From Brucella grignonensis (lineage in GTDB: Bacteria > Pseudomonadota > Alphaproteobacteria > Rhizobiales > Rhizobiaceae): a stretch of 64,000 nucleotides of DNA. The notes beneath the pieces are model-generated. The model did no database searches, was not told where the DNA came from, and saw only the letters and a list, made by a program, of their open reading frames with translations. A program made the translations under genes and the position numbers. The stretch lies in contig NZ_NNRL01000163.1 in the NCBI RefSeq assembly GCF_002252505.1, forward strand, positions 62,001 through 126,000, in the 5' to 3' direction. Below are positions 20,065-51,721 of the stretch, piece by piece. How positions within the stretch are numbered: the stretch's first letter is position 1; the number at the start of each line of letters is the position of its first letter.

Positions 20065-20862
20065 TTGCTGATCGATAGGGCATTTTTTTCCGAAGTCGCT
20101 TCGGTGGCTGCAGCTGAAACCTTGCCGCGATTCCGCCAGTTCACGGCGGTCGACAATAAATACACCTCTGGATTTGATCCGGTGACGGAAGCAGACCGCG
20201 CTGCGGAGCGTGCGATTCGCGCCGTGATCGGGCGCGAGTTTCCAGACCATGGCATCCTCGGCGAAGAATATGGCGCGGAGAATATTGATCGCAGTCATGT
20301 ATGGGTCATCGATCCGGTTGACGGAACGCGCGCCTTCATATCCGGTCTGCCGGTATGGGGGACGCTGGTTGGCCTGACAGTTGAAGGTGATGCCAGGGCT
20401 GGGATGATGTCACAGCCTTTTACGGGCGAGCTGTTCTATAGCGACGGTGACGGTTCTTATCTGATGCGCGAAGGTGGAGAGCAACGTCGACTGGCAGTGC
20501 GTTCTCAAGCCAGACTTGAAGACGCGACCATGTTCACGACAACGCCCGCACTCTTCAAGGGGGATCTGCGCAAAGGTTTTGATCGGCTGGAGAGTTCTGT
20601 GCGTCTGTCGCGTTATGGTGTCGATTGCTACGCTTTTGCCATGCTTGCAGGCGGCTTTACCGATATCGTAGTGGAAGCAGGCCTCCAGCCTTATGACATT
20701 GTGGCACTGATCCCGATTATCGAGCAGGCGGGTGGTATTGTAACGCAGCGTGACGGTGGTCCGGCAGAAAAGGGCGGCGATATTGTTGCTGCTGCATCTC
20801 CCGCATTGCATCAGGCGGCACTTGAACTGCTGAACAGCGAGAGCATTTCCTGTTTTTCTTGA
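20065..20862 (+). CDS. hisN: histidinol-phosphatase, inositol monophosphatase type
   Basis: About 265 residues of the inositol-monophosphatase fold. Actinobacteria and Rhizobiales use this type (HisN) for histidinol-phosphate dephosphorylation in histidine biosynthesis. Metal ligands are in ILGEEYG, VIDPVDGTRAF and YGVDCYAF. No good ATG exists. A TTG at 20065 six bases after GGGAGA gives LIDRAFFSEVASVAAAETL; TTG codons at 20059 and 20023 are alternatives. The last residues (about ESISCFS) and the stop lie inside a palindromic repeat that has replaced the original 3' end. The sRNA candidate just upstream is transcribed away from it. Confidence 0.85.
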   Translation: MLIDRAFFSEVASVAAAETLPRFRQFTAVDNKYTSGFDPVTEADRAAERAIRAVIGREFPDHGILGEEYGAENIDRSHVWVIDPVDGTRAFISGLPVWGTLVGLTVEGDARAGMMSQPFTGELFYSDGDGSYLMREGGEQRRLAVRSQARLEDATMFTTTPALFKGDLRKGFDRLESSVRLSRYGVDCYAFAMLAGGFTDIVVEAGLQPYDIVALIPIIEQAGGIVTQRDGGPAEKGGDIVAAASPALHQAALELLNSESISCFS

Positions 20863-20943
20863 ATCATTGGAAATGCTCTATCTCTTTGTTTTGTCGCATT
20901 ATCCGACGCAAAACTGCTTCGCACTTTTGCTGGAAATGCTCTA
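20840..20943 (-). repeat. palindromic repeat family 1 (Bru-RS-like), copy A
   Basis: A 104-bp element with terminal inverted repeats AGAGCATTTCC/GGAAATGCTCT and an internal third copy of the same motif. On the minus strand it matches the elements at 38185 and 39309 almost base for base. It starts inside hisN and supplies its final codons. One end carries TA (CTCTA) and the other has lost it (CGAGAGC). Confidence 0.85.
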
Positions 20944-20962
20944 ACTTGAATACCGATGCACT

Positions 20963-21958
20963 CTACGTCTGATCGGGATTTGCGGGTTCTGTGGTTTCTG
21001 GTTGCGCTTCAATTTCCGAGGTTCCGGGAATGAACGCATCAAAAGCCGCCAGAACCTGCTCTCGGTAGAAATCGGCTTCCTGCAACAATTCATGGCGTCC
21101 GCCATCGATGACAACCAGCGAGATATTGCGTGTGCTTGCAGCAAAGCGCTCTATTGCCGGTGTGGAAACGACCTGATCGGCACCTGCCGCGATTATCAGC
21201 ACAGGAATTGCTGGCCCTTGATAAAAATCGGGTCGCCTGATGAGTGATGCGGTTTCAAGCGCGCCCGCAAGCCAACGCACAGTGGGGCCACCGAGCGCCA
21301 GATCAGGATTGCTGCGCACAACTTCCATATTGCGCGTAAAGCGCGCTGGATCGCTTGTCAGTGGATTATTGGCGAAAGGCCGGTCAATCATCTTTCGCCC
21401 TGCCGCGGCATAAAGCCTGCCAAAACCGAACCAGCGCAAGCCGGTGGTGATGCGGCGCATCTTGTCGTCGCTCGATTGTGAGCCGCCGAGTCCCATCAAA
21501 GGTGCGCAAAGCACCATGCGCGTAATGCGTGATGCAAGCTTTGGCATCGATGAATAGGCAATTAAAGCTCCCGCGGAGTGGGCAAAGACATAGAAGGGCG
21601 GCGGGCAGTCAGGCAGAACAACATCTGTAAGAAACTGATCAAGATCATTGGTGTAATCGCTGAAACGACCGACATAGCCGCGCAAACGATCCTTGAGCAG
21701 CCTGTGCGAACCGCCTTGGCCACGCCAATCAAGGGTGGCGACGGTAAAGCCGCGATCCGAAAGCTCGGACATGGTCTCGAAATATTTCTCGATAAATTCG
21801 TTGCGACCTTGCAGCAGTATGATTGTGCCGCGTGACGGCTTGGTTTGCGACTTGAGGAGCGCATAGCGCAAGCTCTTGCCGTCCCGTGTTTCCAACATGC
21901 CAGATTGCGTTCCCGGCGGTATGGGGTTCGCATCGGTCTCAAAAAGAAAATCTGGCAT
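20963..21958 (-). CDS. alpha/beta hydrolase, lysophospholipase (PldB) type
   Basis: A 331-residue hydrolase of the lysophospholipase L2/monoacylglycerol lipase group. The oxyanion loop LLQGRNEFIEKYFE precedes TLDWRGQGGS. The nucleophile elbow is AHSAGA instead of the usual GHSMGG. The acid and base are in IIAAGADQVVST and GGRHELLQE. The Pro/Glu/Thr-rich C-terminal tail is probably disordered. There is no signal peptide, so it likely acts on lipids from the cytoplasmic side. Its 3' end lies 20 bp from repeat copy A at the end of the convergent hisN. Confidence 0.82.
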   Translation of the reverse strand: MPDFLFETDANPIPPGTQSGMLETRDGKSLRYALLKSQTKPSRGTIILLQGRNEFIEKYFETMSELSDRGFTVATLDWRGQGGSHRLLKDRLRGYVGRFSDYTNDLDQFLTDVVLPDCPPPFYVFAHSAGALIAYSSMPKLASRITRMVLCAPLMGLGGSQSSDDKMRRITTGLRWFGFGRLYAAAGRKMIDRPFANNPLTSDPARFTRNMEVVRSNPDLALGGPTVRWLAGALETASLIRRPDFYQGPAIPVLIIAAGADQVVSTPAIERFAASTRNISLVVIDGGRHELLQEADFYREQVLAAFDAFIPGTSEIEAQPETTEPANPDQT

Positions 21959-22015
21959 TCAGGTTTTTGTCCCAAGTTACATTTTGCACCATCATATAAT
22001 GGGATAAAGGATGAT

Positions 22016-22052
22016 AAAAAGTAACCGGAAGTTTGCGAGCAAACTTCCGGTT
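22016..22052 (-). terminator. strong rho-independent terminator
   Basis: A perfect 14-bp inverted repeat (AACCGGAAGTTTGC/GCAAACTTCCGGTT, 22023-22052) with a two-base centre. On the minus strand it is followed by ACTTTTTATC. It ends the secreted basic protein gene at 22111. Confidence 0.85.
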
Positions 22053-22110
22053 CAGGAAACAACCTGTGCAAGGGACGTTACACGGGTTGATCTGTTGGTT
22101 CTGGCTGGAA

Positions 22111-22548
22111 TTACCAGCCGCGACCGGCACGACGCTCATCGATGATGCGACCGCTGAAAGCGTCAACCACGACGATGACGCGACGACCGCTCGGACGTGT
22201 CGCCCTGACGAAATAGGCACCGCGATCACGACGTATGTCGCCAACATCGTAACCACGGCGTTGCAGCGAACGGGCAACCTGGCGGGGGCCAAGCGTATCG
22301 CGACGTCCGTAATCGCCACCCCAGTCGGGTCCGCGACCCCGTCCATGATTGGGTCCACGGTCATATCCGCGATCCGGGCCATCCCAATCAGGGCGTGGTC
22401 CGCCGCGTGGCGGCATAGGCGGACGATAGCCGTCATCGTCGTAATACTGAACCTGAACGCGCAGCCCATTGTCGGCCGCATGGGATGTGGTCGCGATCCC
22501 TGTCGCGACAGTGGCAAGTGCGGCAAAAGCAAGAAAAGCTTTTTTCAT
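22111..22548 (-). CDS. secreted Gly/Arg/Asp/Pro-rich protein with PepSY-like C-terminus
   Basis: A 145-residue exported protein. The signal peptide is MKKAFLAFAALATVATGIAT, with cleavage likely after SHA. Residues about 40-85 form a low-complexity stretch rich in G, R, D and P (repeats of DRGxDRGP, GRGPDWGG). The last 55 residues (PRQVARSLQRRGYDVGDIRR, then GRRVIVVVDAFSGRIIDE) resemble the small PepSY-like domain of many alphaproteobacterial periplasmic proteins. AAAGGA precedes the start and a strong terminator follows. No function is assigned; metal or cell-wall binding would be guesses. Confidence 0.75.
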   Translation of the reverse strand: MKKAFLAFAALATVATGIATTSHAADNGLRVQVQYYDDDGYRPPMPPRGGPRPDWDGPDRGYDRGPNHGRGRGPDWGGDYGRRDTLGPRQVARSLQRRGYDVGDIRRDRGAYFVRATRPSGRRVIVVVDAFSGRIIDERRAGRGW

Positions 22549-22784
22549 AACCGTAATCCTTTGATGAACCCGCTTCTCAGCAGGCATAGTGGGACAATAG
22601 CCCCAAGCACCTGAACGCTCGCCGAAGATGATGTTCATTTTGGGTTCATTGCATGGCGTATCCCCCAATTTGCAGGCCCCAAACGATCAGGAGTTGTTAC
22701 GGCAGGTGATAAGCCGTGTAACGCTATTCTCTGGTTATGCGGGGGTGGCTCGCGGTGTTTTCTGCAATGCACTTTCAAATCAGC

Positions 22785-22813
22785 CTTGAAATGAAAAAGC
22801 GGCATTCCCAAAT
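22785..22813 (+). promoter_or_regulatory. RpoH (sigma-32) type promoter of ibpA
   Basis: CTTGAAA (22785-22791) and CCCAAAT (22807-22813), separated by 15 bp, match the heat-shock sigma consensus (CTTGAAA, about 11-16 bp, CCCATNT). The expected 5' leader is about 100 nt. Confidence 0.65.
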
Positions 22814-22819
22814 GAGTTT

Positions 22820-22921
22820 TGCGGTCGCCGAATACGGGATCGCCGGCACGAGGAATTCGCCAGAATGGGAATTCTGCCGCCAATATAAAGCATTCTTGTC
22901 GCTCTTAAGGAGGGCTTACAT
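22820..22921 (+). promoter_or_regulatory. probable ROSE-type RNA thermometer in the ibpA leader
   Basis: The leader of about 100 nt can form an upstream hairpin around the two GAATTC copies (about 22853-22876). It ends with TCGCT just before AAGGAGG. The UYGCU motif facing the Shine-Dalgarno is the hallmark of ROSE elements, which hide the ribosome site of small heat-shock genes in rhizobia at low temperature. The fold was drawn by hand only. Confidence 0.55.
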
Positions 22922-23395
22922 ATGCGTCACGTTGATTTTTCCCCGCTCTATCGTTCCACCGTTGGTTTTGACCGTCTCTTTTCCTCGATGCTTGATACGC
23001 TTGCATCGCCGGAAGGTTCACAGTCCTATCCGCCATATAATATCGAGCGGACCGGTGAGAACGCCTATCGCATCACCATGGCCGTGGCCGGCTTTTCGGA
23101 AAGCGAACTTGAAATCGAAGCCCATCGCAATCAGTTGACCGTCAAGGGCCAGAAGGCCGAGAACGATGGTTCTGAAACAGGTGAAGTGCTTTATCGCGGC
23201 ATTGCTTCGCGTGCTTTTGAGCGCCGCTTCCAGCTTGCAGACTTTGTTGAAGTCGCTGGTGCCAGCCTTAAAAACGGCTTGCTCCATATCGATCTCAAGC
23301 GCGAAATCCCTGAACAGATGAAGCCGCGCAAGATCGAAGTAAGCCAGGCATCGACGGCTGATGCCCAGCAGATTGAGGCGAAAACTGCCCACTAA
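22922..23395 (+). CDS. ibpA: small heat-shock protein, Hsp20/IbpA type
   Basis: A 157-residue ATP-independent holdase that binds unfolding proteins in the cytoplasm. The N-terminus DFSPLYRSTVGFDRLFS is typical of class A rhizobial sHsps. The alpha-crystallin domain spans about residues 36-135 (YNIERTGENAYRITMAVAGF to the conserved ASLKNGLLHIDLKRE). AAGGAGGG precedes the ATG. Both a sigma-32 promoter and a ROSE-like leader point to heat-shock control at transcription and translation. Confidence 0.93.
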   Translation: MRHVDFSPLYRSTVGFDRLFSSMLDTLASPEGSQSYPPYNIERTGENAYRITMAVAGFSESELEIEAHRNQLTVKGQKAENDGSETGEVLYRGIASRAFERRFQLADFVEVAGASLKNGLLHIDLKREIPEQMKPRKIEVSQASTADAQQIEAKTAH

Positions 23396-23420
23396 TCTCT
23401 GTAGAGACTGACATATAAAG

Positions 23421-23449
23421 AAAGCGGCGCATTCAGCGCCGCTTTTTTT
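23421..23449 (+). terminator. rho-independent terminator after ibpA
   Basis: AAGCGGCGC-ATTCA-GCGCCGCTT followed by seven T. It lies between the convergent ibpA and threonine aldolase genes. On the minus strand CTTTCTTT follows, so it may work both ways. Confidence 0.88.
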
Positions 23450-23468
23450 GGCTTTTGGGATACGCGCT

Positions 23469-24518
23469 TTAAGCGATAAGCTTGCCGAACTGATCGATTT
23501 CTTCTTCAGTATTGGCGAAACTTGTTACGAAACGTGCGAAAATCTCGCCTTCGCTGATACGATTGACCTCGGAATGCGGAGGGTTCCAGTCGTAGAAAAT
23601 CGCGCCAGCATCGCGCAGGCGATCATAGACGGACTGCTTCATGATCGCGAAAACCTCGTTGGCTTCCGGCTTCCATGCAAGCCGCATCTGGCTTGAGGCA
23701 TCAATGTGGCGGGCAAGGCGCGCAGACAGCGCATTGGAATGCTTCGCCAACTCGATCCAAAGATTATCTTCGAGATAGGCATCAAACTGAGCGGCAATAA
23801 ACCGGGTCTTTGAGAAAAGCTGTGCTGCACGTTTGCGGATGAACGGAAGATCCTTGGCGCGGGCAGGGTCCATGAAGACGAGCGCTTCTGCACACCAGCA
23901 ACCATTCTTGGTGCCGCCAAAGGAAACGATATCGACGCCCTGTTTCCAGGTCATTTCTGCAGGCGTCATGTCCAACGATACAAGTGCGTTGGCAAAGCGC
24001 GCACCGTCCATATGCAGTGGCAGGCCCGCACCACGGCAGATTTCAGAAATCGTGGAAATATGCTCCGGCTGATAAAGCGTGCCGACTTCCGTGGCCTGCG
24101 TGATGCTGACTGCCATCGGCTGACCGGCATGGACGAAAGCCGGATTGAAACGCTTGAGTTCGCGCTTGAGCAATTCAGGATCAATACGGCCCATTGCGCC
24201 ATCAATGGGATGTAGACGTGCGCCGCCGGTGAAATATTCCGGTGCACCGCATTCATCTTCGATCACATGCGCTTCGCGATGCACGAGCGAGACGCCACCC
24301 GGACGGTTGACGCTGGCCAGCGCCAAGGAGTTGGCCGCTGTGCCTGTGCCGACGAAGAAGACAGCGACTTCCCGTTCGAACAATTCATTGAAACGCTGCT
24401 CTACGCGCTTGTCGATTTCGCTTGCCCCGTAGGCGGCTGCAAAACCGTTGGCATGAAGTGAGAGACTTTCAGCGATTTTCGGGTGGGCGCCTGCCCAGTT
24501 GTCTGAAGCAAAATGCAC
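23469..24518 (-). CDS. ltaE: low-specificity L-threonine aldolase
   Basis: A 349-residue PLP enzyme of the beta-eliminating lyase/threonine aldolase family. It cleaves L-threonine and L-allo-threonine to glycine and acetaldehyde. HMDGARFANAL (D171, R174) contacts the cofactor, and K204 in FGGTKNGCW is the Schiff-base lysine. The glycine-rich GTGTAANSLAL (58-68) binds phosphate. The start is GTG at 24518, six bases after GGAG. It is convergent with ibpA. Confidence 0.9.
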   Translation of the reverse strand: MHFASDNWAGAHPKIAESLSLHANGFAAAYGASEIDKRVEQRFNELFEREVAVFFVGTGTAANSLALASVNRPGGVSLVHREAHVIEDECGAPEYFTGGARLHPIDGAMGRIDPELLKRELKRFNPAFVHAGQPMAVSITQATEVGTLYQPEHISTISEICRGAGLPLHMDGARFANALVSLDMTPAEMTWKQGVDIVSFGGTKNGCWCAEALVFMDPARAKDLPFIRKRAAQLFSKTRFIAAQFDAYLEDNLWIELAKHSNALSARLARHIDASSQMRLAWKPEANEVFAIMKQSVYDRLRDAGAIFYDWNPPHSEVNRISEGEIFARFVTSFANTEEEIDQFGKLIA

Positions 24519-25164
24519 GTTGTTCTCCGCCAGCAGTGGGACCTTATCGAAGAGGTCTATAGCCGGACTCGGTTACAGGTGTAAGGCCTGCGGATGTTAA
24601 AAAGAGAAAGGCCAGTGTCACTTTCCGGAACATCCGATGCTTGTCGCCAGCCGTGCCAAACTGACGCAACAAGCATGAAGCGCAATTAAATAACTTGAAT
24701 GTGAATGTCTGCGACACTTTGTTTCGCAATGGCGTCGAAAAAATCATGTTTCCATCTTGTGAGCGAATTTGAATTCTGTCATACGTGATTAGGACAGCAA
24801 TGCTGACTAATTCACTCTTGCAGTCCAATTCATCACTGTAATCGTCAGGTGTCTTGTCAAAGCTTCCGTCAGTTGCAGAAAGAAGGTGCCGCGCGGATCG
24901 GGATAACCCGGCGGAATGCGGCACTTAAAGAGGCAGGGGAGTTTGGTGCGCCATATGGCGGGCTGAGGTCGCTTGTCCGAGCCTGAAAGACTAAGGCGCT
25001 AAAACAATATTCCTTTCGATGGCTGTGCCATCGGTCACGGAACGTCGTCCAACGCCTTTTCGATAAGGCTCCCACACACAAAAAGTTCACTTAAGGAACG
25101 AATAGCCGTTCCGGTTCATTATCGTATCGCGCGCAGGGTCGCGCGCTCACTGGAGGGAATGACG
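24519..25164. other. 646-bp region upstream of gltB without a supported gene
   Basis: It must hold the divergent ltaE and gltB promoters. A 126-codon minus-strand frame (24544-24924) has no ribosome site or recognisable family and is not called. GCGCGC-AGGGTC-GCGCGC just before gltB could form a leader hairpin. No sRNA signature was recognised. Confidence 0.5.
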
Positions 25165-29916: not shown

Positions 29917-29984
29917 ACTTATATCGAAACGCGGAGCTTGTGCGCCTGAAATGGCGCACGGTAATGCGAGAGGAGCATAGAATA

Positions 29985-31439: not shown

Positions 31440-31457
31440 TCGCAATGATTACGTGAT

Positions 31458-37884: not shown

Positions 37885-38187
37885 ATGAATCTGACGCCGA
37901 GAGAAAAAGACAAGCTTCTGATTGCCATGGCGGCCATGGTTGCACGCCGCCGACTCGAACGCGGTGTGAAGCTCAATCACCCGGAAGCAATTGCGCTGAT
38001 CAGCGACTTTGTGGTGGAGGGCGCGCGTGATGGGTGTTCCGTCGCAGACCTCATGGAAGCTGGTGCCCATGTGATTACGCGTGAGCAGGTGATGGCAGGT
38101 GTGGCTGAGATGATCCACGACGTTCAGGTCGAAGCGACCTTCCTTGATGGCACCAAGCTTGTCACCGTGCACGAACCAATTCGCTAG
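37885..38187 (+). CDS. ureA: urease gamma subunit
   Basis: A 100-residue gamma subunit, starting [20 protein letters not shown], with the typical [20 protein letters not shown] and [20 protein letters not shown]. It packs against UreB and UreC in the (alpha-beta-gamma)3 enzyme. A GTG just before the ATG at 37885 is a less likely start. The stop codon TAG is the first three bases of a palindromic repeat, which lies between this gene and hupE. Confidence 0.96.
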
Positions 38188-38288
38188 AGCATTTCCAGCA
38201 AAGTGCGAAGCGGTTTTGCGTCGGATAATGCGAAAAAACAAAGAGATAGAGCATTTCCAATGATTCAAGAAAAACAGGAAATGCTCTA
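38185..38288 (+). repeat. palindromic repeat family 1 (Bru-RS-like), copy B
   Basis: A 104-bp element running from TAGAGCATTTCC to GGAAATGCTCTA, with an internal TAGAGCATTTCC. It is identical to copy C except for a one-base A indel. Its first TAG is the ureA stop. Its last TA is shared with the next palindrome at 38286. It is transcribed within the urease operon. Confidence 0.88.
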
Positions 38289-38328
38289 GTGTGGTGGATT
38301 TGAAGTTCAAATCCGTAAACCACACTAG
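38286..38328. repeat. palindromic repeat family 3, 43 bp
   Basis: CTAGTGTGGT/ACCACACTAG are perfect 10-bp outer arms. GGATTTGAA/TTCAAATCC are perfect 9-bp inner arms. It abuts copy B and shares its CTA, so one element sits at the border of another. It has CTAG at both ends. Confidence 0.85.
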
Positions 38329-38412
38329 ATTCAATATCATACCAGTAAGGCTTGGAACCCGAAGTTTGGGTTCGCCATACCAGAGCGAGAAGACATAAAA
38401 GAGGGAATGAAA

Positions 38413-39005: not shown

Positions 39006-39311
39006 ATGATACCCGGAGAAATCATTACGGTTGATGGCGAGATAGAGCTCAATCAGGGCCAGCCGACGATTACTCTCAAGGTCGCCAATACAGGTGATCG
39101 CCCGATCCAGGTGGGCAGTCATTATCACTTCTATGAGGTCAATGCGGCGCTGTCTTTTGATCGCGAACAGGCGCGGGGCTTCAGACTCGATATTGCAGCG
39201 GGAACCGCCGTTCGTTTCGAGCCGGGGCAGGAGCGTGACGTGACGCTGGTGCCGATCAGCGGGAAGCGCGAGATTTATGGTTTCCGTCAGCTTGTCATGG
39301 GCAAGCTCTAG
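39006..39311 (+). CDS. ureB: urease beta subunit
   Basis: A 101-residue beta subunit: [20 protein letters not shown] at the start, then [19 protein letters not shown] and the conserved [13 protein letters not shown] and [11 protein letters not shown]. It lies 8 bp after the hupE-type gene. The stop TAG is the first three bases of palindromic repeat copy C. Confidence 0.96.
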
Positions 39312-39413
39312 AGCATTTCCAGCAAAAGTGCGAAGCGGTTTTGCGTCGGATAATGCGAAAAAACAAAGAGATAGAGCATTTCCAATGATTCAAGAAAAAC
39401 AGGAAATGCTCTA
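39309..39413 (+). repeat. palindromic repeat family 1 (Bru-RS-like), copy C
   Basis: A 105-bp element, from TAGAGCATTTCC to GGAAATGCTCTA, nearly identical to copies A and B. It provides the ureB stop codon and fills most of the gap before ureC, so the urease transcript carries a large hairpin here. Confidence 0.88.
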
Positions 39414-39434: not shown

Positions 39435-41147
39435 ATGCCTGCCAGAATTAGTCGCGCAACCTATGCGCAGATGTTCGGGCCAACGACCGGCGACAAGGTT
39501 CGGCTTGCCGATACGGAGTTGTTCATCGAAGTTGAAAAAGACCTGACCGTTTATGGTGAGGAGGTTAAATTCGGCGGAGGTAAGGTTATTCGCGATGGCA
39601 TGGGGCAAAGCCAGTTGTCGCGCGCGCAAGGCGCGATGGATACCGTCATCACCAATGCACTGATCCTCGATCACACCGGCATTTACAAAGCCGATGTCGG
39701 GTTGCTTGATGGCCGCATTGCGGGCATCGGTAAGGCAGGCAATCCCGATACGCAGCCGGGTGTGACCATCATCATAGGGCCGGGCACAGAAATCATTGCA
39801 GGCGAAGGCCGTATTCTCACAGCAGGCGCGATCGATTCACACATTCACTTCATTTCGCCGCAGCAGGTGGAAGAAGCTTTGAACTCCGGCGTCACCTGCA
39901 TGGTTGGCGGCGGCACAGGTCCTGCGCATGGCACGCTTGCAACCACCTGCACGCCGGGGCCGTGGAATATTGCCCGTCTCATTCAGTCCTTTGACGGCAT
40001 GGCGATGAATTTCGGTGTCTTTGGTAAGGGCAATGCTTCGCTTCCGGGCGCGCTTGAGGAAATGGTGCTCGCAGGTGCCTGCGGTCTGAAGCTGCATGAG
40101 GATTGGGGCACAACACCGGCATCTATCGATAATTGCCTTGCGGTCGCAGATCGTTTTGATGTGCAGGTGGCAATTCACACTGATACGCTCAATGAATCGG
40201 GCTTTGTCGAAGACACGCTTGCGGCTTTCAAAGGCCGCACGATCCACTCATTCCACACGGAAGGTGCAGGTGGCGGGCACGCGCCAGATATCATCCGCGT
40301 CTGCCAATATCCGAATGTGTTGCCAGCATCGACCAACCCGACGCGGCCTTATACGGTTAATACGATTTCCGAGCATCTCGACATGCTGATGGTCTGCCAT
40401 CACCTGTCGCCGTCCATTCCGGAAGACATTGCCTTTGCTGAAAGTCGTATCCGTAAGGAGACAATCGCGGCGGAAGATATTCTGCATGACATGGGAGCTT
40501 TCTCGATTATTTCGTCCGACAGTCAGGCGATGGGTCGTGTTGGCGAAATGGTCATCCGCTGTTGGCAAACTGCCGATAAGATGAAACGACAACGTGGTTC
40601 TCTTTCCGACGATGCACCGGGCAATGACAATTATCGTGTTCGTCGTTATGTGGCGAAATATACGATTAATCCGGCAATCGCTCATGGCATGTCGCATGAG
40701 ATCGGCTCGGTGGAAGTTGGAAAGCGCGCCGATCTCGTCTTGTGGAGCCCGGCATTCTTTGGCGTGAAGCCTGATTTCGTTTTGCTTGGTGGATGGATTG
40801 CGACCGCGCCGATGGGCGACCCGAATGCATCTATCCCGACGCCGCAACCTATGCATTACAGGCCGATGTTCGGCTCATTCGGCAAGGCTCGCACCAACAG
40901 CTCTGTGACATTTGTTTCTGAAGCCGCGATGAGTGCGGGACTGCGTGAGACGATTGGCGTCGACAAACAGATGGTTGCGGTCAAGAATACGCGCGGTGGC
41001 ATTGGCAAGCGCTCGATGATTTTGAATGATGCGATGCCACAAATGGAAGTCGATCCGGAAACCTATGAAGTTCGGGCCAATGGCGAGCTTCTGACCTGCG
41101 AGCCGGTCGATGTTGTCCCGATGGCACAACGCTACTTCCTGTTTTAA
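39435..41147 (+). CDS. ureC: urease alpha (catalytic) subunit
   Basis: A 570-residue catalytic subunit that hydrolyses urea to ammonia and carbamate. The nickel ligands and active-site residues are intact: H136 and H138 (IDSHIHF), the carbamylated K219 and H221 (GLKLHEDWG), H248 (AIHTDTLNE), H274 ([10 protein letters not shown]), the flap C321-H322-H323 (MVCHHLS) and D362 (SSDSQAMG). AGGGG lies before the ATG. The length is normal and the enzyme should be active. In Brucella, urease protects cells during acid passage through the stomach. Confidence 0.98.
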
Positions 41148-41156
41148 AGGTGTAAA

Positions 41157-42291: not shown

Positions 42292-42899
42292 CACAGAAAA
42301 ACGGACCTTTGCGCGTTGGTATTGGTGGCCCTGTCGGCTCGGGTAAGACGACGCTGACGGAAAAGCTGTGCAAAGCGCTGCGCGATAAATATTCTGTTGC
42401 CGTTATTACCAACGACATTTACACGCGTGAGGACGCGCTCATTCTCGCAAAGCATCAGGCTTTGTCCGAAGACCGTATCATGGGTGTGGAAACCGGTGGT
42501 TGCCCGCACACGGCAATCCGCGAAGATGCCTCGATCAATCTTCAGGCAATTGCCGAGATGAACAAGCGGTTTCCTGATCTCGATATCGTCTTCATCGAAT
42601 CGGGTGGTGACAATCTTGCAGCGACATTCTCGCCCGATCTGGCTGATCTGACGCTTTATGTGATCTCTGTTTGTCAGGGCGAGGAAATACCACGTAAGGG
42701 CGGGCCGGGCATTACACGGTCCGATTTTCTCATCATCAACAAGAGCGATTTAGCACCCTATGTCCATGTGGATCTCGATATCATGAATGAGGACGCGGCG
42801 CGGATGCGCGGCAAACGCCCTTATGGATTTACCGATCTTCATCGCGGCAAAGGTGTGCAGGAGGTTGTTGAATTCATTTTGGAGAACGGCAATCTATAG
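42288..42899 (+). CDS. ureG: urease accessory GTPase UreG
   Basis: A 203-residue SIMIBI GTPase that delivers nickel to urease. The P-loop GPVGSGKT is at residues 14-21. The Cys-Pro-His nickel motif is in [13 protein letters not shown], and [15 protein letters not shown] and [10 protein letters not shown] (NKSD guanine specificity) follow. The start overlaps the ureF stop (ATGA). The stop TAG is the first three bases of a short palindromic element that also supplies the stop of the converging LysR gene. Confidence 0.96.
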
Positions 42900-42948
42900 A
42901 GCATATCCTTATCGCAAAGCCGTTTCACACTTTTTGGGATGCGTTCTA
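42897..42948. repeat. short palindromic element, family 2, between ureG and lysR
   Basis: A 52-bp element from TAGAGCATATCC to GGGATGCGTTCTA. Its left TAG is the ureG stop and its right CTA, read on the minus strand, is the LysR stop. The inner sequence CCGTTTCACACTTTTTGGGA matches the elements at 48796 and 51618 with few changes. Confidence 0.75.
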
Positions 42949-43833: not shown

Positions 43834-43941
43834 GTCATCACCTGTGAATCTAATGAATAGCTATATACAATATTATCAGTATTATCATTTGATATCCAGA
43901 GAGCGATATGAGGGCAATATTAAACAACAGGAACTCCTCCC

Positions 43942-45123: not shown

Positions 45124-45140
45124 AAATCAAAGGAACTAGC

Positions 45141-45965
45141 ATGCATAACGTAACAACAAATGGTGCCACCATTCCCGCCCTTGGCCTTGGCACTTTCCGT
45201 ATGCCCGGCGAAGATGTGCTGCGCATCGTCCCTTATGCGCTCAAGGCTGGCTTCCGCCATGTCGATACCGCGCAGATTTATGGCAACGAAGCCGAAGTCG
45301 GTGAAGCCATTTTAAGCTCCGGCGTTCAGCGTGGCGATATCTTCCTGACCACAAAAGTCTGGGTCGATAATTACAAGCATGATGCTTTTATCGCATCTGT
45401 CGATGAAAGCCTTGCCAAACTCAAGACCGACTATGTTGATCTGTTACTTCTGCATTGGCCGAATGAAGCTGTGTCGCTTGCCGAACAGATCGGTGCGCTG
45501 AACGAAGTGGCAAAGGCTGGCAAGGTTCGTCACATTGGCGTGTCGAACTTCAACAAGACATTGATGGCAGAAGCAAAGGCGCTTTCCGATCTGCCGCTGG
45601 TGACGAACCAGATCGAATATCATCCATATTTGAGCCAGCGCAGCGTGATTGAAGCAACTCATGCGGCTGGCATGTCGATCACTGGCTATTATGCGATGGC
45701 CGACGGAAAAGTGTTCAGCGATACGGTTCTCAAGGACATCGCCGCAGCCCACGGCAAGTCGGTTGCACAGGTGGTTCTTCGCTGGCTGGTACAGCAGGAT
45801 AATGTGATTGCATTGTCCAAGACAGTTAGTGAGGCACGAATTCTGGAAAACCTGGCCATTTTCGACTTTGCATTAAGCGAGGCTGAAATGCAGGTAATTC
45901 ATGCACTTGCCAAACCCGATGGACGTATTGTCAGCCCGGATGGGTTGGCCCCTCAGTGGGACTGA
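45141..45965 (+). CDS. aldo/keto reductase (DkgB-like)
   Basis: A 274-residue NADPH-dependent oxidoreductase of the AKR superfamily with the complete catalytic tetrad: D42 and Y47 (VDTAQIYGNEAEVG), K72 (LTTKVW) and H105 (LLLLHWPN). The cofactor pocket is seen in VIALSKTVSEARILENL. It is closest to the 2,5-diketogluconate reductase B/methylglyoxal reductase group. Pairing with an exporter suggests joint detoxification of a carbonyl compound. A strong terminator follows. Confidence 0.88.
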   Translation: MHNVTTNGATIPALGLGTFRMPGEDVLRIVPYALKAGFRHVDTAQIYGNEAEVGEAILSSGVQRGDIFLTTKVWVDNYKHDAFIASVDESLAKLKTDYVDLLLLHWPNEAVSLAEQIGALNEVAKAGKVRHIGVSNFNKTLMAEAKALSDLPLVTNQIEYHPYLSQRSVIEATHAAGMSITGYYAMADGKVFSDTVLKDIAAAHGKSVAQVVLRWLVQQDNVIALSKTVSEARILENLAIFDFALSEAEMQVIHALAKPDGRIVSPDGLAPQWD

Positions 45966-45972
45966 AAATAAG

Positions 45973-45999
45973 AAGGACGGCGTAAGCCGTCCTTTTTCT
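45973..45999 (+). terminator. terminator after the aldo/keto reductase
   Basis: AAGGACGGC-GTAA-GCCGTCCTT with TTTC and further T after it. It lies between two converging genes, 15 bp from the end of the outer-membrane protein gene, and may be bidirectional. Confidence 0.88.
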
Positions 46000-46008
46000 T
46001 GTTTGGGT

Positions 46009-47598
46009 TTAGCGTTGCACTTTCATGCCGACATAAATGCTATTGGCGCGGTATTCTCGATCCGAGATTTGGCTGGTCTGGAATTCATGACGCAGTCGCG
46101 CGTCAATGCCGACATAGCGGTTGATCCAATATGTTCCACCGATCTGCGCGCCGATTGTGTAGTCGGTTCCGGTGCCATCCTTGTTGTCACGGACATTGAG
46201 GTCGAGCTTACCGTTGAGGCTCAGATCCGCGCGCACGCGCCGCGTGACTTCAAGGCTTGCAAAATGCAGAAGCGCGCCCGAAACGCCGGGTGTCGTTGAA
46301 GTGTCCACCGTGGTTTGCGCATAAAGCTGCACATCGGTTCCGCGTAGCGGCGACCAGTTGATGGCAGCTGCAAGTGATGGTCCACTGATATCGCCCAGAC
46401 GAGGATCATCGCTATTGGCGCGCATGAAGCCAGCGGAAAATTCCCCATTAAATTTTTCACCACGATCAAACATCAGGCCACCGCGTACCGCATATTGCGA
46501 GCCGCTGCGCTCATAGCCGTTGTTGTCCACACGTTCATCGAACATGCGTTTGCCCAGTTCAACTTCGGCAAAAGGCTTGAGTGCGGGTGAAATGGCAAAA
46601 CCACCACGCAGCGTTATGCTGGCATAGGTGTTATCGCGATCTTGCTGGCTGACGGTGCCGCCCGATGACAATTCTGCATCGCCATAGATTTCATGCTCGA
46701 CGCGACCTGTTGCGCGACCAAAAAGCAGGCCGGTGTCGCGCTCAACGCCCAAGCTGCCATTGATGGTGTGAACAAGCGGACGTTTGAGAGCATCGGCCAC
46801 ACCGTTGGGGCTCGATGCGCTTTCGCGGCGCAGCTTGTAGCCTCCGCCGGCATTGACGGTTGTCTGCTCGCTGAGATCAAAGCGAAGATTGCCCTGAACA
46901 TCGACGCGTGGTTCCGACACATCCTGACCGGAAATCGATTTGCTGAGCGTGCCTGAGGCATCCAGCGTTGCCTGATGGCGTCCCCAATCGGATTCTGCAT
47001 TGAGGCGCAGCGTTGTTTCCGAGAGGATGGCGCTCGAACCAGTTGAGCTGTTATCGCCATTTGTTGTGGCGCGAATGCCATACTCGAGCGTGGGGCGCAG
47101 CATGAATGTGCCGACACGAACCCCCAATGGTGCAAAAGGATCCGCTTCCGGTATGGCGCGACGACCCTGTTCCGGAATGGCGGGCAGGTTTTCGCGACGC
47201 GCGCGACCAGTATCATCCTGGTCTTCAGTTGTGATTGCACCAACGCGCATATTATCTGTCGAAAGGAACGGTTGGGCGTTCTCCTCCGCAGCTGGCACGG
47301 CCAATGCCGGTTCGGTGGGCTGCGGTTGGGCGGCATTGTCGGCAGGTGGTGTGTAGAAACTATCCGCGAAGTCAGCTGATGCGGGCGCATTCGGATCAGC
47401 CGGATCAGTATCACGATTTGCGGTCTGGTCAGGTAAAGAAACGGAGAGGTTATCGTCGTTCACACTGCCGCGCAGCTGGGCATCCTGCGCAAACGCTGTC
47501 GATTGACTGATTGCCAAGGCACACCCTGCCAGCAACAGGCATCGCGCCCTGCGGGCAAAAGGCGATGATCCGCCGGATGAGGAATTGGCAAAAAGCAT
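46009..47598 (-). CDS. outer-membrane beta-barrel protein (putative beta-barrel porin 2 type)
   Basis: About 529 residues. The signal peptide (RRARCLLLAGCALAIS to AFAQ) is followed by a Pro/Ala/Asp-rich low-complexity part (about 40-150). The rest is a barrel of roughly 400 residues with alternating strands (LRPTLEYGIRATTNG, ATLDASGTLSK, ASLEVTRRVRADLSLNGKLD), ending in IYVGMKVQR. The alternation and Gly/Tyr girdles resemble the large rhizobial BBP2-type porins of unknown role. ATG 47598 has a weak GAAG; ATG 47646 is in frame and lacks any ribosome site. It is divergent from kdsD, suggesting an envelope role. Confidence 0.78.
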   Translation of the reverse strand: MLFANSSSGGSSPFARRARCLLLAGCALAISQSTAFAQDAQLRGSVNDDNLSVSLPDQTANRDTDPADPNAPASADFADSFYTPPADNAAQPQPTEPALAVPAAEENAQPFLSTDNMRVGAITTEDQDDTGRARRENLPAIPEQGRRAIPEADPFAPLGVRVGTFMLRPTLEYGIRATTNGDNSSTGSSAILSETTLRLNAESDWGRHQATLDASGTLSKSISGQDVSEPRVDVQGNLRFDLSEQTTVNAGGGYKLRRESASSPNGVADALKRPLVHTINGSLGVERDTGLLFGRATGRVEHEIYGDAELSSGGTVSQQDRDNTYASITLRGGFAISPALKPFAEVELGKRMFDERVDNNGYERSGSQYAVRGGLMFDRGEKFNGEFSAGFMRANSDDPRLGDISGPSLAAAINWSPLRGTDVQLYAQTTVDTSTTPGVSGALLHFASLEVTRRVRADLSLNGKLDLNVRDNKDGTGTDYTIGAQIGGTYWINRYVGIDARLRHEFQTSQISDREYRANSIYVGMKVQR

Positions 47599-47742
47599 AT
47601 TGTCTTCAAACCGTTGCAACGTGGTAATTGAACGGTAAACGGACATGGTTAATTGTTTATTAATTGTTGCTTTCCAAGTGCCCGTATTGTGCGGCAACAA
47701 ATGCTTGGACAACCGGCTTTGAAGGCGCTAACCCTGTGCGCC

Positions 47743-48759
47743 ATGACCCAATCCGATATGACAAAGCTCGACACCACCTATGAAGCCGCACGCGCGGAGG
47801 ATTTGATTGCCTCGGCCTTGCGCACGATCAAGACTGAAAATGCTGGCCTTATGGCGCTGGAAGAAGCCTTGAATGATGGCCTTTCCGCTCCATTTGCAGA
47901 AGCAGTCAGGACGATTGTTGCCTCAAAGGGTCGTCTGGTTGTTACGGGCGTTGGCAAAAGTGGCCATATCGGCACCAAGCTTGCAGCGACTTTTGCCTCT
48001 ACCGGGACATCGGCTTTTTTTGTGCATTCTGCCGAAGCCAATCATGGCGATCTGGGCATGGTTGGCCGTGATGATGTGATCCTCGCCCTGTCATGGTCGG
48101 GCGAAACAGCTGAGCTCAAAGGTATTGTCAATTATTCGCAGCGCTTCCGCATTCCGCTGATTGCTATTACAGCCGGTGAAGACTCGGCGCTTGGAAGGGC
48201 GGCGAGCGTTGCTTTAATTCTGCCAAAGGCACAGGAAGCCTGTCCGCATGGGCTGGCGCCTACGACATCGACAATGATGCAGCTTGCCATTGGCGATGCG
48301 CTTGCAATCGCTCTTCTGGAAGCGCGTGGCTTCAGCCCGACAGACTTCAAGACTTTCCATCCGGGCGGTTCGCTTGGTGCGAGCCTTACCCATGTTCGCG
48401 AGATCATGCATAGGGGTGAACGTCTGCCGCTGGTCAGGGCGGGCACATTGATGCCGGATGCCATGAAGGTTCAGGCTCAGAAGAGCTTCGGCTGCGTGAT
48501 TGTTGTCAATGACGATGGCACATTGGCTGGAATTATCACGGACGGTGATATTTCACGTAATCTGAGCCGCAATCTTTCAGAACTTGCTGTCGATGACATC
48601 ATGACACGCAAGCCCAAGACAGTGGATCAGAATCTGCTCGCCAGCGCTGCTTTGAGCATACTCAATGAGAAACATATTGGCGCACTGATTGTGGTTGAGG
48701 ACAATCGACCGATCGGCCTCGTGCACTTCCACGATCTGCTGCGCATCGGGGTTGCTTGA
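47743..48759 (+). CDS. kdsD: D-arabinose-5-phosphate isomerase (KpsF/GutQ family)
   Basis: A 338-residue isomerase converting ribulose-5-phosphate to arabinose-5-phosphate, the first step to Kdo for lipopolysaccharide. An N-terminal SIS domain (VVTGVGKSGHIGTKLAATFA, SAEANHGDLGMV, LSWSGETAEL, CPHGLAPTTSTMMQLA) is followed by a pair of CBS domains (about 215-335, FGCVIVVNDDGTLAGIITDG). The start is uncertain: ATG 47743 is chosen, but 47701 and 47758 are possible. The 5' end overlaps the region upstream of the divergent outer-membrane protein. A palindromic repeat follows. Confidence 0.9.
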   Translation: MTQSDMTKLDTTYEAARAEDLIASALRTIKTENAGLMALEEALNDGLSAPFAEAVRTIVASKGRLVVTGVGKSGHIGTKLAATFASTGTSAFFVHSAEANHGDLGMVGRDDVILALSWSGETAELKGIVNYSQRFRIPLIAITAGEDSALGRAASVALILPKAQEACPHGLAPTTSTMMQLAIGDALAIALLEARGFSPTDFKTFHPGGSLGASLTHVREIMHRGERLPLVRAGTLMPDAMKVQAQKSFGCVIVVNDDGTLAGIITDGDISRNLSRNLSELAVDDIMTRKPKTVDQNLLASAALSILNEKHIGALIVVEDNRPIGLVHFHDLLRIGVA

Positions 48760-48795
48760 GTGGGAATAGGCAGAGAACTGTATGTTCCACTGCCT

Positions 48796-48891
48796 TAGAA
48801 CGTGTTTCGATCTGATTGAATCAGGTCGGCGCTCTAATCATTTTTTACGCGCATCCCGAAAACCGTTTCACAGTTTTCGGGATGCGCTCTA
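48796..48891. repeat. palindromic repeat family 2, copy between kdsD and nfeD-like gene
   Basis: A 96-bp element from TAGAACGTGTTTCGATCTGA to CGGGATGCGCTCTA. It contains two smaller hairpins (GATCTGATTGAATCAGGTC-like, and CATCCCGAAAA..TTTTCGGGATG). Its right CTA is the stop codon of the minus-strand NfeD gene. It is related to 51618-51721 in reverse order. Confidence 0.82.
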
Positions 48892-49347
48892 AACAGCCAC
48901 TTCAATTTCCAGTGTGATTGGATCAAAGGACACTACGCGCACTTCCGTGCCTGCGGGTAGGTCAGGACCTTTGATACGCCATGTCGTGTCGTTGATACGG
49001 ATGCGTCCGCGTCCGTTGACGATCGGCTCACTCAAAGTGGCACGCTGTCCAACCAGTTGCTCGCCTCGACGGTTAAGCAGCGGCTCCTCCTGCTGATCAT
49101 TGAAGCCGAAAAAGCGCCGGCCCGCCAGCACGAATGCAATGGCGAGAACCAAAAACAGTACAGTCTGCACTTGCCAGCCAAAACCGATTATTGAGCCGAG
49201 CAGGAAAGCGAGGCCACCCGTGACAAGGGCTGCAAGGCCAAACCAGATGAAGAAGAAGCCGGGCGCCATAATTTCCAGAATGAGCAGGACAAGTCCTAAA
49301 ACGAACCAGCTCCAAAGCCCAAGCTGTGACAGGAAATGAATAAGCAT
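48889..49347 (-). CDS. NfeD-like membrane protein
   Basis: A 152-residue short NfeD protein with two or three hydrophobic helices in the first 75 residues (LGLVLLILEIMAPGFFFIWF). A C-terminal OB-fold follows (LLNRRGEQLVGQRATLSEPI, INDTTWRIKGPDLPAGTEVR). Short NfeD proteins are encoded with SPFH/stomatin proteins and are thought to anchor or regulate them in membrane microdomains. It lies 14 bp downstream of the SPFH gene. The stop TAG is the end of a palindromic repeat. Confidence 0.88.
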   Translation of the reverse strand: MLIHFLSQLGLWSWFVLGLVLLILEIMAPGFFFIWFGLAALVTGGLAFLLGSIIGFGWQVQTVLFLVLAIAFVLAGRRFFGFNDQQEEPLLNRRGEQLVGQRATLSEPIVNGRGRIRINDTTWRIKGPDLPAGTEVRVVSFDPITLEIEVAV

Positions 49348-49361
49348 GACGCCCTGCCTCT

Positions 49362-50348
49362 TTAACGATTGGTGGTGGGTACGCTGCGGGTGCGTGGGTT
49401 GGATGCCGCAGGTGTTGGATCAACCGGATTGCTGCCGTCGCCAAAAACTTCTTTGGCAATTGCACCGATACCGGCCAGCGAACCGATCAGCGAACTTGCT
49501 TCAAGCGGCATGAGAACCACTTTCTGATTCTTGGCGCTGGCAATGTTACCGAGCGCTTCGGTATATTTTTGCGCCACAAAGTAATTGAGCGCCTGAACAT
49601 TACCGGCAGACACGGCGTCGGAAACCAGTGTGGTGGCCTTTGCTTCCGCTTCGGCCAAACGTTCGCGGGCTTCTGCTTCGCGCTTGGCAGCTTCAAGCTT
49701 GCCTTCTGCTTCCAGAATCTGCGACTGCTTCTGACCTTCCGCACGCAGAATTTGCGCATTGCGGTCGCCTTCCGCTTCCAGAACCTGCGCGCGCTTATCG
49801 CGTTCAGCCTTCATCTGGCGTGCCATGGAAGTGACGATGTCTGCAGGTGGATTGATGTCCTTGATTTCCACGCGCGTCATCTTGAGGCCCCATGGATGCG
49901 CAGCTTCATCGACAACACGCAACAGGCGATCATTGATCGCATCACGGTTGGAGAGCAATTCGTCAAGATCCATAGAACCCATGACGGTACGGATGTTGGT
50001 CATGGTGAGGTTGAGGATCGCATATTGCAGGTTGGAAACCTGATAGGCCGACTGGGCGGCGTTCAGTACCTGATAAAAGGCGACGCCGTCGACACCGACA
50101 ATGGCATTGTCGCGGGTGATGACTTCCTGTGTGGGGACATCAAGGACCTGCTCCATCATATTCAGCTTTGCGCCGATCCGGTCGAAGAACGGAACGATCA
50201 GGTTAAGGCCCGGCATAAGCGTGCGTGTGTAACGGCCAAAGCGTTCCACCGTGTAGTTGTAACCCTGCGGCACAGTCTTGATCCCGGCAAACAGCGTTGC
50301 CAGAACAAGTGCGGCCAAAATCAAGAGCGTGATATCAAAACCAGTCAT
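49362..50348 (-). CDS. SPFH/band-7 domain protein (stomatin-like, QmcA type)
   Basis: A 328-residue membrane-anchored protein. One N-terminal helix ([20 protein letters not shown]) precedes the SPFH domain (about 25-185: [39 protein letters not shown]). A charged coiled coil rich in Ala, Glu and Arg follows (about 180-245, with [20 protein letters not shown]). Such proteins form large membrane-associated oligomers and scaffold proteases. The C-terminal tail is Pro/Thr-rich. First gene of the SPFH/NfeD operon, downstream of hemH on the same strand with 70 bp between. Confidence 0.9.
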
Positions 50349-50418
50349 TTTATAGTCCCCTTCGTGAAGGCGGTAAGGCTAAAGGCAGGGCGAATATGAT
50401 GGCCCGTTGCCTTATGGT

Positions 50419-51456
50419 CTAGACCCAGCCCTGTAATTCGCGCCGCACGAGCGTTTCGATAACTTTCATACCCTCTTCGCTATCGTTGAGGCATGGTATG
50501 TGGCTGAAATTTTCGCCGCCTGCCTCATGGAAAGCTTCAGCTGCTTCGTGACCGATTTCGTCAACGGTTTCCAGACAGTCTACCACAAAGCCGGGATTGA
50601 GTACGGCAACCGACTTCACGCCCTGCTTGGCCAATTCTTCCACCGTCTCATCCGTATAAGGCTGGAGCCATTCTTCCGGGCCGAAACGTGACTGGAAGGT
50701 GGAGCGGAACTGTTTGTCGTCCATGCCAAGACGCGCACGCAAAAGCCGTGATGTTTCAAGGCATTGAGCACGATAAGGGTCACCCTTGTCGGAATAGCTT
50801 TTTGGGATGCCGTGATAGGAAGCAAGGATCACTTCCGGTTTGAAATCGAGCGTCGCAAGATGCTTCTCAATCGACTGTGCGAGCGCCTCGATATAGACGG
50901 GCTCCACTTCGTAGGAAGGGATTGTACGGACCGCTGGCATAAAGCGCTTTTTCATAAGCACTTCGAAGAATTTGTCATTCACCGTGGCCGTGGTGGTCGC
51001 TGAATATTGCGGATAGAGCGGGAACATGACGATGCGTTCGCAACCCTGCTTCAACAGACGATCCGTCACTTCTTCAATCGAAGGCTGACCATAACGCATG
51101 GCCCAGTCAACAACGACATTTGGATGATCTTTGAGCGCGACGGCGAGTTTTTCGCCTTGCGCGCGCGTATAGGTGCGGAGCGGCGATTCATTCTTCTCGC
51201 GATTCCAGATGCGGTCATAGAGCGCGCCGGAACGCTTTGGGCGTGTGTTGAGCACGATGCCGTAGAGGATCGGATACCAGAAAAGGCGCGGCCATTCGAT
51301 AACGCGGCGGTCGGAAAGGAATTCGGCCAAATAACGCCGCATCGGGACATAGCTTGTGCCGTCGGGTGTGCCAAGATTGACAAGCAGAACACCCACTTTA
51401 GGTTGCTTTGTTCCGCTGCTGCTCAGATTGGCGGTTACTTTTTCCGTCTCACTCAT
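50419..51456 (-). CDS. hemH: ferrochelatase
   Basis: A 345-residue enzyme that inserts ferrous iron into protoporphyrin IX, the last step of haem synthesis. Family landmarks are VGVLLVNLGTPD at the start, MRYGQPSIEEV, PLYPQYSATTTATV, ILASYHGIPKSYSDKGDPY with the catalytic His, TFQSRFGPEEWLQPYTD and NPGFVVDCLETVDEI. The ATG at 51456 follows CAGGAG. A single gene with about 260 bp upstream, where part of the space is a palindromic repeat. No iron-responsive box was recognised with confidence. Confidence 0.95.
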   Translation of the reverse strand: MSETEKVTANLSSSGTKQPKVGVLLVNLGTPDGTSYVPMRRYLAEFLSDRRVIEWPRLFWYPILYGIVLNTRPKRSGALYDRIWNREKNESPLRTYTRAQGEKLAVALKDHPNVVVDWAMRYGQPSIEEVTDRLLKQGCERIVMFPLYPQYSATTTATVNDKFFEVLMKKRFMPAVRTIPSYEVEPVYIEALAQSIEKHLATLDFKPEVILASYHGIPKSYSDKGDPYRAQCLETSRLLRARLGMDDKQFRSTFQSRFGPEEWLQPYTDETVEELAKQGVKSVAVLNPGFVVDCLETVDEIGHEAAEAFHEAGGENFSHIPCLNDSEEGMKVIETLVRRELQGWV

Positions 51457-51617
51457 ATTCCGACTCCTGCTTTGCCGGAAAACTAGACAAAAACAGGCAA
51501 ATTACAATCCTAACAATAAGGGCAGCAGTCGAATTGTCGGGTAATCGATAAAATAACCCATAAAAAACGGCACACGCTAAAAGCGTATGCCGTTCGGAAT
51601 GCTGTTTTGCCGTATTT

Positions 51618-51721
51618 TAGAGCGTATCCCGAAAAGTGTGAAACGGTTTTCGGACAAAGATGCGCGTTAAAACAAATATTTAGAGCGCCGATCTGATTCA
51701 ATCAGATCGAAACGCGCTCTA
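51618..51721. repeat. palindromic repeat family 2, copy downstream of omp10
   Basis: A 104-bp element from TAGAGCGTATCCCGAAAAGT to GAAACGCGCTCTA. It has an inner TCTGATTGAATCAGA-like palindrome (GATCTGATTCAATCAGATC). Its right CTA is the omp10 stop. It is the reference copy for the partial elements at 15501 and 42897. Confidence 0.85.

What the first reader, a model, noticed from the sequence alone, without database searches (positions are those of the whole stretch)
20840..51721. TA-flanked palindromic elements sit exactly on stop codons
Seven near-complete copies were found (20840, 38185, 38286, 39309, 42897, 48796, 51618). Almost all ends read TAGAG../..CTCTA or a close variant. In ureA, ureB, ureG, lysR, the nfeD-like gene and omp10 the element's terminal TAG is the gene's stop codon. 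Insertion at TA with regeneration of TAG would convert TAA/TAG stops into the element's own TAG, so it is nearly harmless. This looks like target choice of a small non-autonomous transposon (TA duplication as in IS630/mariner), with selection keeping insertions at stop codons.
Basis: partly seen in the sequence, partly recalled or inferred. Interest (0 to 1): 0.7.

Follow-up and report, generated by a model that had tools for sequence, protein, structure and literature searches.

The report
Palindromic mini-transposons landing beside gene stops
Short two-hairpin repeats of a known alphaproteobacterial type insert at a TA inside a four-base target that contains a stop codon on both strands, so copies that land at gene ends often hand the gene a new stop codon without changing its protein.

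Summary
The six stop-codon overlaps are real: ureA, ureB, ureG, lysR, an nfeD-like gene and omp10 end in an element's terminal TAG. The seven "copies" are a mixture: three of a 105-bp type (A), two of a related 104-bp type (B), one 52-bp half element and one unrelated palindrome. Of the 80 best-scoring copies in the genome (40 A, 40 B), 31 supply a gene's stop codon; annotated plasmids of other genera show the same. Empty sites in two relatives show insertion with TA duplication; at the five stop-codon sites seen, the ancestral stop was TAA or TAG at the same codon. 56 of 60 intact copies sit at YTAR, which contains a stop codon on both strands. The stop is not specially chosen: per available target, density at the stop (4.0x) is like that 6-20 nt downstream (5.2x, 3.6x) and falls to 0.08x beyond 160 nt, though other null models leave an excess. 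No IS630 or RAYT transposase was found in the draft genome; IS5-type elements with the same YTAR target are resident, with different ends. Best filed as a Bru-RS/CIR-type MITE.

The parts
20839..20943 (-). type A copy (left end degenerate, GAGAG for TAGAG); the 3' end of an inositol-phosphatase-family gene reads into it and stops at TGA 20860-20862
   Evidence: (L022)
38185..38288 (+). type A copy, 104 bp; its first TAG is the ureA stop; target CTAG; also present in G011, absent from G015 (stop TAG at the empty site)
38287..38383 (+). different, internally shortened two-armed element (TAGTGTGGTGG.. / ..CCATACCAG); its TAG is the ureA stop in G015. Right end approximate
39309..39413 (+). type A copy, 105 bp; its TAG is the ureB stop; empty site in G011 reads CTC TAA; G015 carries a diverged element at the same TA
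42897..42948 (-). 52-bp half of type B (folds no better than shuffled sequence); its two ends give the stops of ureG (+) and lysR (-)
48796..48891 (-). type B copy, 96 bp; its TAG is the stop of the nfeD-like gene (minus strand); empty-site stop TAA in G015, TAG in G011
51618..51721 (+). type B copy, 104 bp; its right end gives the omp10 stop (minus strand); empty-site stop TAA in G011 and G015

Best explanation
The elements are MITE-like repeats without a gene of their own, of the alphaproteobacterial two-armed type (Bru-RS / CIR). Shown: they insert at the TA of a YTAR target, duplicate the TA, and begin TAG and end CTA. YTAR reads TAA or TAG on both strands, so every such target is a potential stop codon in either direction, and insertion turns that stop into TAG at the same codon without changing the protein. 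Shown: copies lie mostly within about 80 nt of gene 3' ends, and the stop codon is the commonest YTAR site there. Inferred: an IS5-type (IS427/IS711-like) transposase moved them in trans. Inferred: the 3' bias is mostly loss of insertions in genes and promoters, although a direct insertion preference is not excluded.
For: Empty sites: ureB CTC TAA (G011), ureA TAG (G015), omp10 TAA (G011, G015), nfeD TAA (G015) and TAG (G011), and one intergenic type B site, L115 (G011). Reciprocal case: ureC, TAA in the window, element-supplied stop in G015. Junctions: 56 of 60 copies with intact TA at both ends are at YTAR (words), against 1,319 of 6,119 intergenic TA sites in the background (my sum of the counts). 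Stop overlap: 31 of 80; in the fetched stretches of relatives, 8 of 31 (G011) and 5 of 17 (G015) element intervals have a stop at offset 0, and 2 and 1 more at offset 1. In other genera, 9 of the 12 type A sites with a listed gene that I opened overlap by exactly the 3-base stop, and 2 of 3 type B sites. Position: 52 of 60 lie within 80 nt of a gene 3' end, 16.6 expected; density ratios 4.0 at the stop, 5.2 at 6-10 nt, 3.6 at 11-20, 0.45 at 81-160, 0.08 beyond, 0.23 in divergent regions. None of 80 is spanned by a called gene. Window copies 39309 and 51618 fold as two hairpins joined by a linker. Three resident IS5-type elements share the target, and IS711 is reported to duplicate TA at YTAR.
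Against: No transposon with matching ends was found. In the own genome the IS5-type elements whose ends I could define begin GGG, GGC and GGT; of 29 loci from other species, TA-flanked ends could be proposed for 7 (two of them weak) and none begins GAGC; many more matches in the genus were not looked at. So the transposase is inferred. The type-matched null (9.8 of 60 expected, 25 seen) leaves a 2.6-fold excess at stops, and the within-region null conditions on regions that were hit. Copies closest to consensus are not less often at stops than diverged ones (17 of 40 versus 14 of 40), so no slow build-up by selection is visible. Gene-free placement is not universal: two annotated Rhizobium plasmid genes cover a type A copy and a Bartonella gene covers a type B copy. 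The second element family in the window is at a stop in 0 of 4 other copies located.
Confidence: 0.77

Rival explanations
1. IS630/mariner-type MITE that chooses, or is selectively kept at, stop codons.
For: TA duplication at empty sites; excess at stops over non-coding TA sites of the same words (25 of 60 seen, 6.4 expected) and over region-type-matched sites (9.8 expected).
Against: No DDE_3 (IS630) match in the draft genome; a strong YTAR rule; similar density 6-20 nt past the stop; within-region excess only 25 versus 20.4.
Confidence: 0.08
2. Positioned regulatory hairpins: selection keeps the element right after stop codons because its arms act in mRNA 3'-end stability or termination.
For: Strong predicted hairpins in two window copies, 3' bias, 34 of 60 copies in convergent regions against a background share of 0.17-0.18.
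Against: Orthologous genes lack the element in relatives; either end of the element can be at the stop (A 5 left, 9 right; B 11 left, 9 right), and there is no rise with divergence.
Confidence: 0.1
3. REP-like repeats spread by a RAYT (Y1) transposase.
For: Palindromic, mostly intergenic, high copy number.
Against: No Y1_Tnp match in the draft genome; TA duplication at empty sites.
Confidence: 0.02
4. Premature-stop creation: elements landed inside genes near the 3' end and their TAG truncated the protein.
For: The stop is supplied by the element in 31 of 80 copies.
Against: At the five stop-codon sites with an empty counterpart (ureA, ureB, omp10, nfeD, and reciprocal ureC) the other genome ends at the same codon; in all 60 intact copies the target word ends in A or G, so for a gene that ends at the element's left TAG the rejoined site reads TAA or TAG in frame.
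Confidence: 0.03

Closest known systems
Bru-RS1 / Bru-RS2 of Brucella (Halling and Bricker 1994; not seen itself, only passages of papers that cite it)
   Same: 103-106 bp, palindromic, repeated, in the same wider group; reported insertion hot spots for IS711, whose target is YTAR.
   Different: Its letters could not be compared: no named Brucella record was returned. In the passages I saw, target duplication and stop-codon overlap of Bru-RS itself are not mentioned.
CIR repeats of Caulobacter and Brucella (Chen and Shapiro 2003, not seen; described in passages of PMC2229807)
   Same: About 110 bp, TA at the ends, two hairpin arms with a linker, GANTC at a loop (GATTC in 32 of 40 type A copies); type B hits in Asticcacaulis, a Caulobacterales genus.
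   Different: Type B has GATCC there in 37 of 40 copies (my count) and GANTC in 1 of 40. That review lists the target duplication of CIR as '?' and says CIR have not been found inside genes; here TA duplication is seen, and a Bartonella plasmid copy lies in frame inside a gene.
Pneumococcal BOX elements (PMC3049150, passages seen)
   Same: BOX gives the stop codon in 36 of 58 overlapping genes, without strong evidence of truncation: the same phenomenon.
   Different: Different host; no YTAR target is described in the passages seen; sequences not compared.
MITEPsy1 of Pseudomonas syringae (PMC3189936, passages seen)
   Same: 100-nt MITE that inserts at CTAG or YTAA.
   Different: That paper reports duplication of the four bases and a likely parent (ISPsy2); here the duplication is TA and no parent was found.
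RUP / ERIC / Correia elements (table and passages of PMC2229807)
   Same: Small MITEs with TA at the ends.
   Different: Described there as one stem formed by the two ends; RUP is tied to IS630-Spn1. Sequences not compared here.

Membership tests
Bru-RS / CIR type repeat | about 103-110 bp, high copy, intergenic | tested here: met
   104-105 bp, 36 + 40 full-length places at 93% identity or more; 0 of 80 spanned by a called gene. Exceptions in other genera:
Bru-RS / CIR type repeat | two hairpin arms with linker | tested here: met
   two window copies, + strand, z -5.8 to -8.3 as DNA and RNA; other full copies not folded
Bru-RS / CIR type repeat | GANTC at an arm loop (CIR) | tested here: inconclusive
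   32 of 40 A, 1 of 40 B
Bru-RS / CIR type repeat | sequence identity to the published Bru-RS1/CIR sequences | not testable with these tools
   named Brucella records not returned; sequences not printed in the passages seen
IS5-type (IS427/IS711-like) mobilised MITE | TA duplication at YTAR | tested here: met
   IS711 target; resident IS5-type elements
IS5-type (IS427/IS711-like) mobilised MITE | terminal repeats match an autonomous element | tested here: not met
   no match among the own-genome loci or the 29 other loci whose ends could be defined; not exhaustive
IS630/mariner-type MITE | IS630-type transposase in the genome | tested here: not met
   0 DDE_3 matches; draft genome in 169 contigs, so absence is not final
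REP/RAYT | Y1 transposase; no target duplication | tested here: not met
   0 Y1_Tnp matches; TA duplication
RIME1 of rhizobia (recalled; only a reference-list entry seen) | same sequence family in Sinorhizobium/Rhizobium | tested here: inconclusive

The most novel reading that the evidence does not exclude
The element's ends (TAG..CTA) and its YTAR target form a stop-conserving landing system: both strands of target and element carry stops in the same place, so insertion at a gene end, in either orientation, is translationally silent. Selection on the element may have favoured these ends because they let it accumulate at gene ends across alphaproteobacteria, repeatedly and perhaps even at the same codon (the ureB stop holds different elements in two species and none in a third).
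Probability: 0.2. Interest if true: 0.6.

Novelty: new member of a known kind. Interest (0 to 1): 0.4.

Why it matters
It shows a target duplication for repeats of the CIR type, which a 2007 review listed as unknown, and explains why such repeats often form the last codon of genes: a property of the target word plus a 3'-end bias, not recognition of stop codons. It also warns annotators that an element-supplied TAG need not be a truncation.

Tried and rejected
Stop codon as special target: not favoured, by the distance profile and the within-region null; the type-matched null still shows an excess, and all are reported. IS630: no DDE_3 match. RAYT: no Y1_Tnp match. Parent transposon: loci of 7 PF13340 rows and of 7 of the 8 PF01609 rows in the own genome (several at the same places), and 29 loci from other species, were scanned for terminal repeats; none with definable ends begins GAGC. 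The loose 10-base pairs (two mismatches allowed) look like chance and were not followed. Of the 100 listed places of TAGAGCATTTCC (123 in all), three inward pairs are 0.2-3 kb apart: two of 1.2 kb join two window copies, and one of 2.3 kb (C60) was not followed. Rhizobiales urease loci: 80 fetched, only 4 usable element matches, 1 at a stop, too few. Literature searches brought up no report, in the listings and passages I saw, of stop-codon overlap for repeats of this type; the library lacks most subscription papers, including the 1994 and 2003 originals.

Of 17 comparisons at 10 own sites: 7 at 5 sites are empty sites (ureB, ureA, omp10 twice, nfeD twice, L115; the G011 nfeD flank is less alike); L005 is empty in G011 but its site is degenerate; 4 are filled in the relative (ureB in G015, ureA in G011, L178 in both); 5 are unclear or concern the second element (L022 twice, L130, the second element twice).

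Rows dropped before counts: one 73% partial row; six opposite-strand rows at places already counted; for the null tests 20 of 80 copies without intact TA at both ends (6 of those 20 are at stops). The 40 type A copies include one 71-bp fragment. Only 40 places a query were scored (208 and 228 first-look candidates), so weaker copies are in no count. In one search the numbers of copies per region type were typed in from the listing. Of named plasmid rows, repeats of sites already opened and several others (among them H26, H30, H34-H36 and H38) were not opened. In one search one of five further copies of the second element (L320) was not located. The gene calls come from a simple caller that I wrote and trained on this sequence, not from a standard annotator.
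Full report
What is there. The window lies in a 4.8-Mb draft genome, contig C66:62001-126000. One relative in its genus, G015, has an element at the same coordinates as the public record NZ_CP022605.1 of Ochrobactrum quorumnocens, so the window is most likely from an Ochrobactrum-like species (inference). The elements fall into type A (105 bp, TAGAGCATTTCC...GGAAATGCTCTA) and type B (104 bp, TAGAGCGCATCC...GCGCTCTA), which align to each other. Window copies 39309 (A) and 51618 (B) fold as two hairpins with a linker; the 52-bp half element at 42897 does not fold better than shuffles. Type A has 36 full-length places at 93-100% identity and type B 40. Mean pairwise identity is 0.927 over the 32 A copies of 105 bp and 0.953 over the 34 B copies of 104 bp, which suggests recent spread (inference). 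Type A matches occur in 34 of 35 species searched in the genus, the own one included, and in 425 plasmid records, mostly Rhizobium and Sinorhizobium, with Shinella, Agrobacterium and others; type B in 57 records, among them Agrobacterium, Rhizobium, Bartonella and Asticcacaulis.

The stop codons. Six genes in the window end in an element's TAG. The site 38286 is a different element; 20840 is a copy that a gene reads into. Among the 80 best copies, 31 supply a stop (13 of 40 A, 18 of 40 B, three of them to genes on both sides). In the fetched stretches of G011 and G015, 8 of 31 and 5 of 17 element intervals have a stop at offset 0. In plasmid records annotated by others I opened 12 sites where a listed gene overlaps a type A copy: 9 overlap by exactly the 3-base stop (fdhA, ROK regulator, treY, ABC permease, a hypothetical gene, aldehyde dehydrogenase, DUF4360, amino-acid binding protein, phnN) and 3 do not (one gene starts 8 bases inside the copy; two annotated genes cover it). 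They were chosen because a gene was listed under the match, so 9 of 12 is not a rate. For type B I opened three: Asticcacaulis and Agrobacterium (a partial match) are exact stops, Bartonella lies inside a gene.

Empty sites. In G011 and G015 the matching sites read: ureB..AAGCTC TAA CCTCGG.. (G011) against ..AAGCTC TAGAG...CTC TA ACCTCGG.. in the window; ureA, TTCGC TAG (G015); omp10 TAA (both); nfeD TAA (G015) and TAG (G011, flank less alike); and an intergenic type B site, L115 (G011). The reverse case is ureC: TAA in the window, element-supplied stop in G015. TA is duplicated and the stop codon keeps its place. At the ureB stop G015 carries a diverged element (alignment score fraction 0.73 to the A consensus), the window a consensus-identical one and G011 none, which suggests separate insertions at one codon (inference; other histories are possible).

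Target. Of 60 copies with intact TA at both ends, 56 are at YTAR. Type A favours CTAG and TTAG, type B TTAA. The class YTAR maps to itself on the other strand and contains TAA or TAG on each strand; that is what makes insertion at a stop silent.

Is the stop special? The null models disagree in size and I give all. Against non-coding TA sites of the same words: A 10 of 27 seen, 2.7 expected; B 15 of 33 seen, 3.7 expected. Matched for convergent, tandem or divergent region: 25 of 60 seen, 9.8 expected, 0 of 200,000 simulations as high. Within the very regions hit: 25 seen, 20.4 expected, P 0.03 (it conditions on the outcome and is conservative). I give most weight to the distance profile: relative to available weighted YTAR sites the ratio is 4.0 at the stop (25 seen), 0 at 1-5 nt (0 seen, 0.4 expected), 5.2 at 6-10 (7), 3.6 at 11-20 (6), 1.9 at 21-40 (5), 2.1 at 41-80 (9), 0.45 at 81-160 (3), 0.08 beyond (2) and 0.23 in divergent regions (3). 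So insertions are found near gene 3' ends generally, and the stop is the commonest YTAR there; the counts per bin are small. Whether this is selection or insertion preference is open: copies near consensus are at stops in 17 of 40 and diverged ones in 14 of 40.

Transposase. No DDE_3 and no Y1 match in the draft genome. DUF4096/DDE_Tnp_1 (IS5-type) transposases are present, and three resident elements are flanked C-TA...TA-R like the repeats, but their ends begin GGC, GGG and GGT. IS711 of Brucella is reported to duplicate TA at YTAR and to favour Bru-RS repeats (passages of PMC2266754 and PMC3163539). An IS5-type enzyme is therefore the best inference; the actual parent was not found.

Known or new. 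The anatomy (about 105 bp, two arms, TA ends, GATTC at a loop in 32 of 40 type A copies) is that of the Bru-RS/CIR repeats described in the passages seen. Pneumococcal BOX elements also supply stop codons (36 of 58 overlapping genes; passage seen).

Noticed in passing
L294:1501-1604 (Bartonella sp. HY328 plasmid): A type B relative lies inside an annotated MFS transporter and is open in the gene's frame; 104 bp less one TA copy would add 102 bases (34 codons). This is against 'not found inside genes' for CIR-type repeats and recalls in-frame palindromic elements of Rickettsia (recalled).
   Followed up: partly
38287-38383; L317, L318, L319, L326: A second, unrelated two-armed element (164-165 bp elsewhere, TAGTGTGG ends, GATTC or a near variant after the first arm) also has C-TA at its left end, and TA-G at its right end where that end is intact. 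None of 4 other copies located is at a stop, but in G015 its TAG is the ureA stop.
   Followed up: partly
G000:C50:302785, C60:266215, C61:96268, C66:577076: Pairs of ends 41-42 bp apart suggest that the right arm of type A occurs alone, as if it were a mobile unit itself.
   Followed up: no
L002 and L005: Type A copies appear nested inside type B sequence (flanks).
   Followed up: no
G009: One 3.3-Mb species of the genus has no type A match at E 1e-10 although the other 34 have; it has 12 DUF4096 matches.
   Followed up: no
39588-39876 minus and 19829-19909 minus: Rfam matches: 5' ureB sRNA on the strand opposite the large urease subunit gene, and the family suhB/mmgR.
   Followed up: no
G015:C3: 15 listed DUF4096 matches with the same score on one replicon, so probably copies of one IS5-type transposase.
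   Followed up: no
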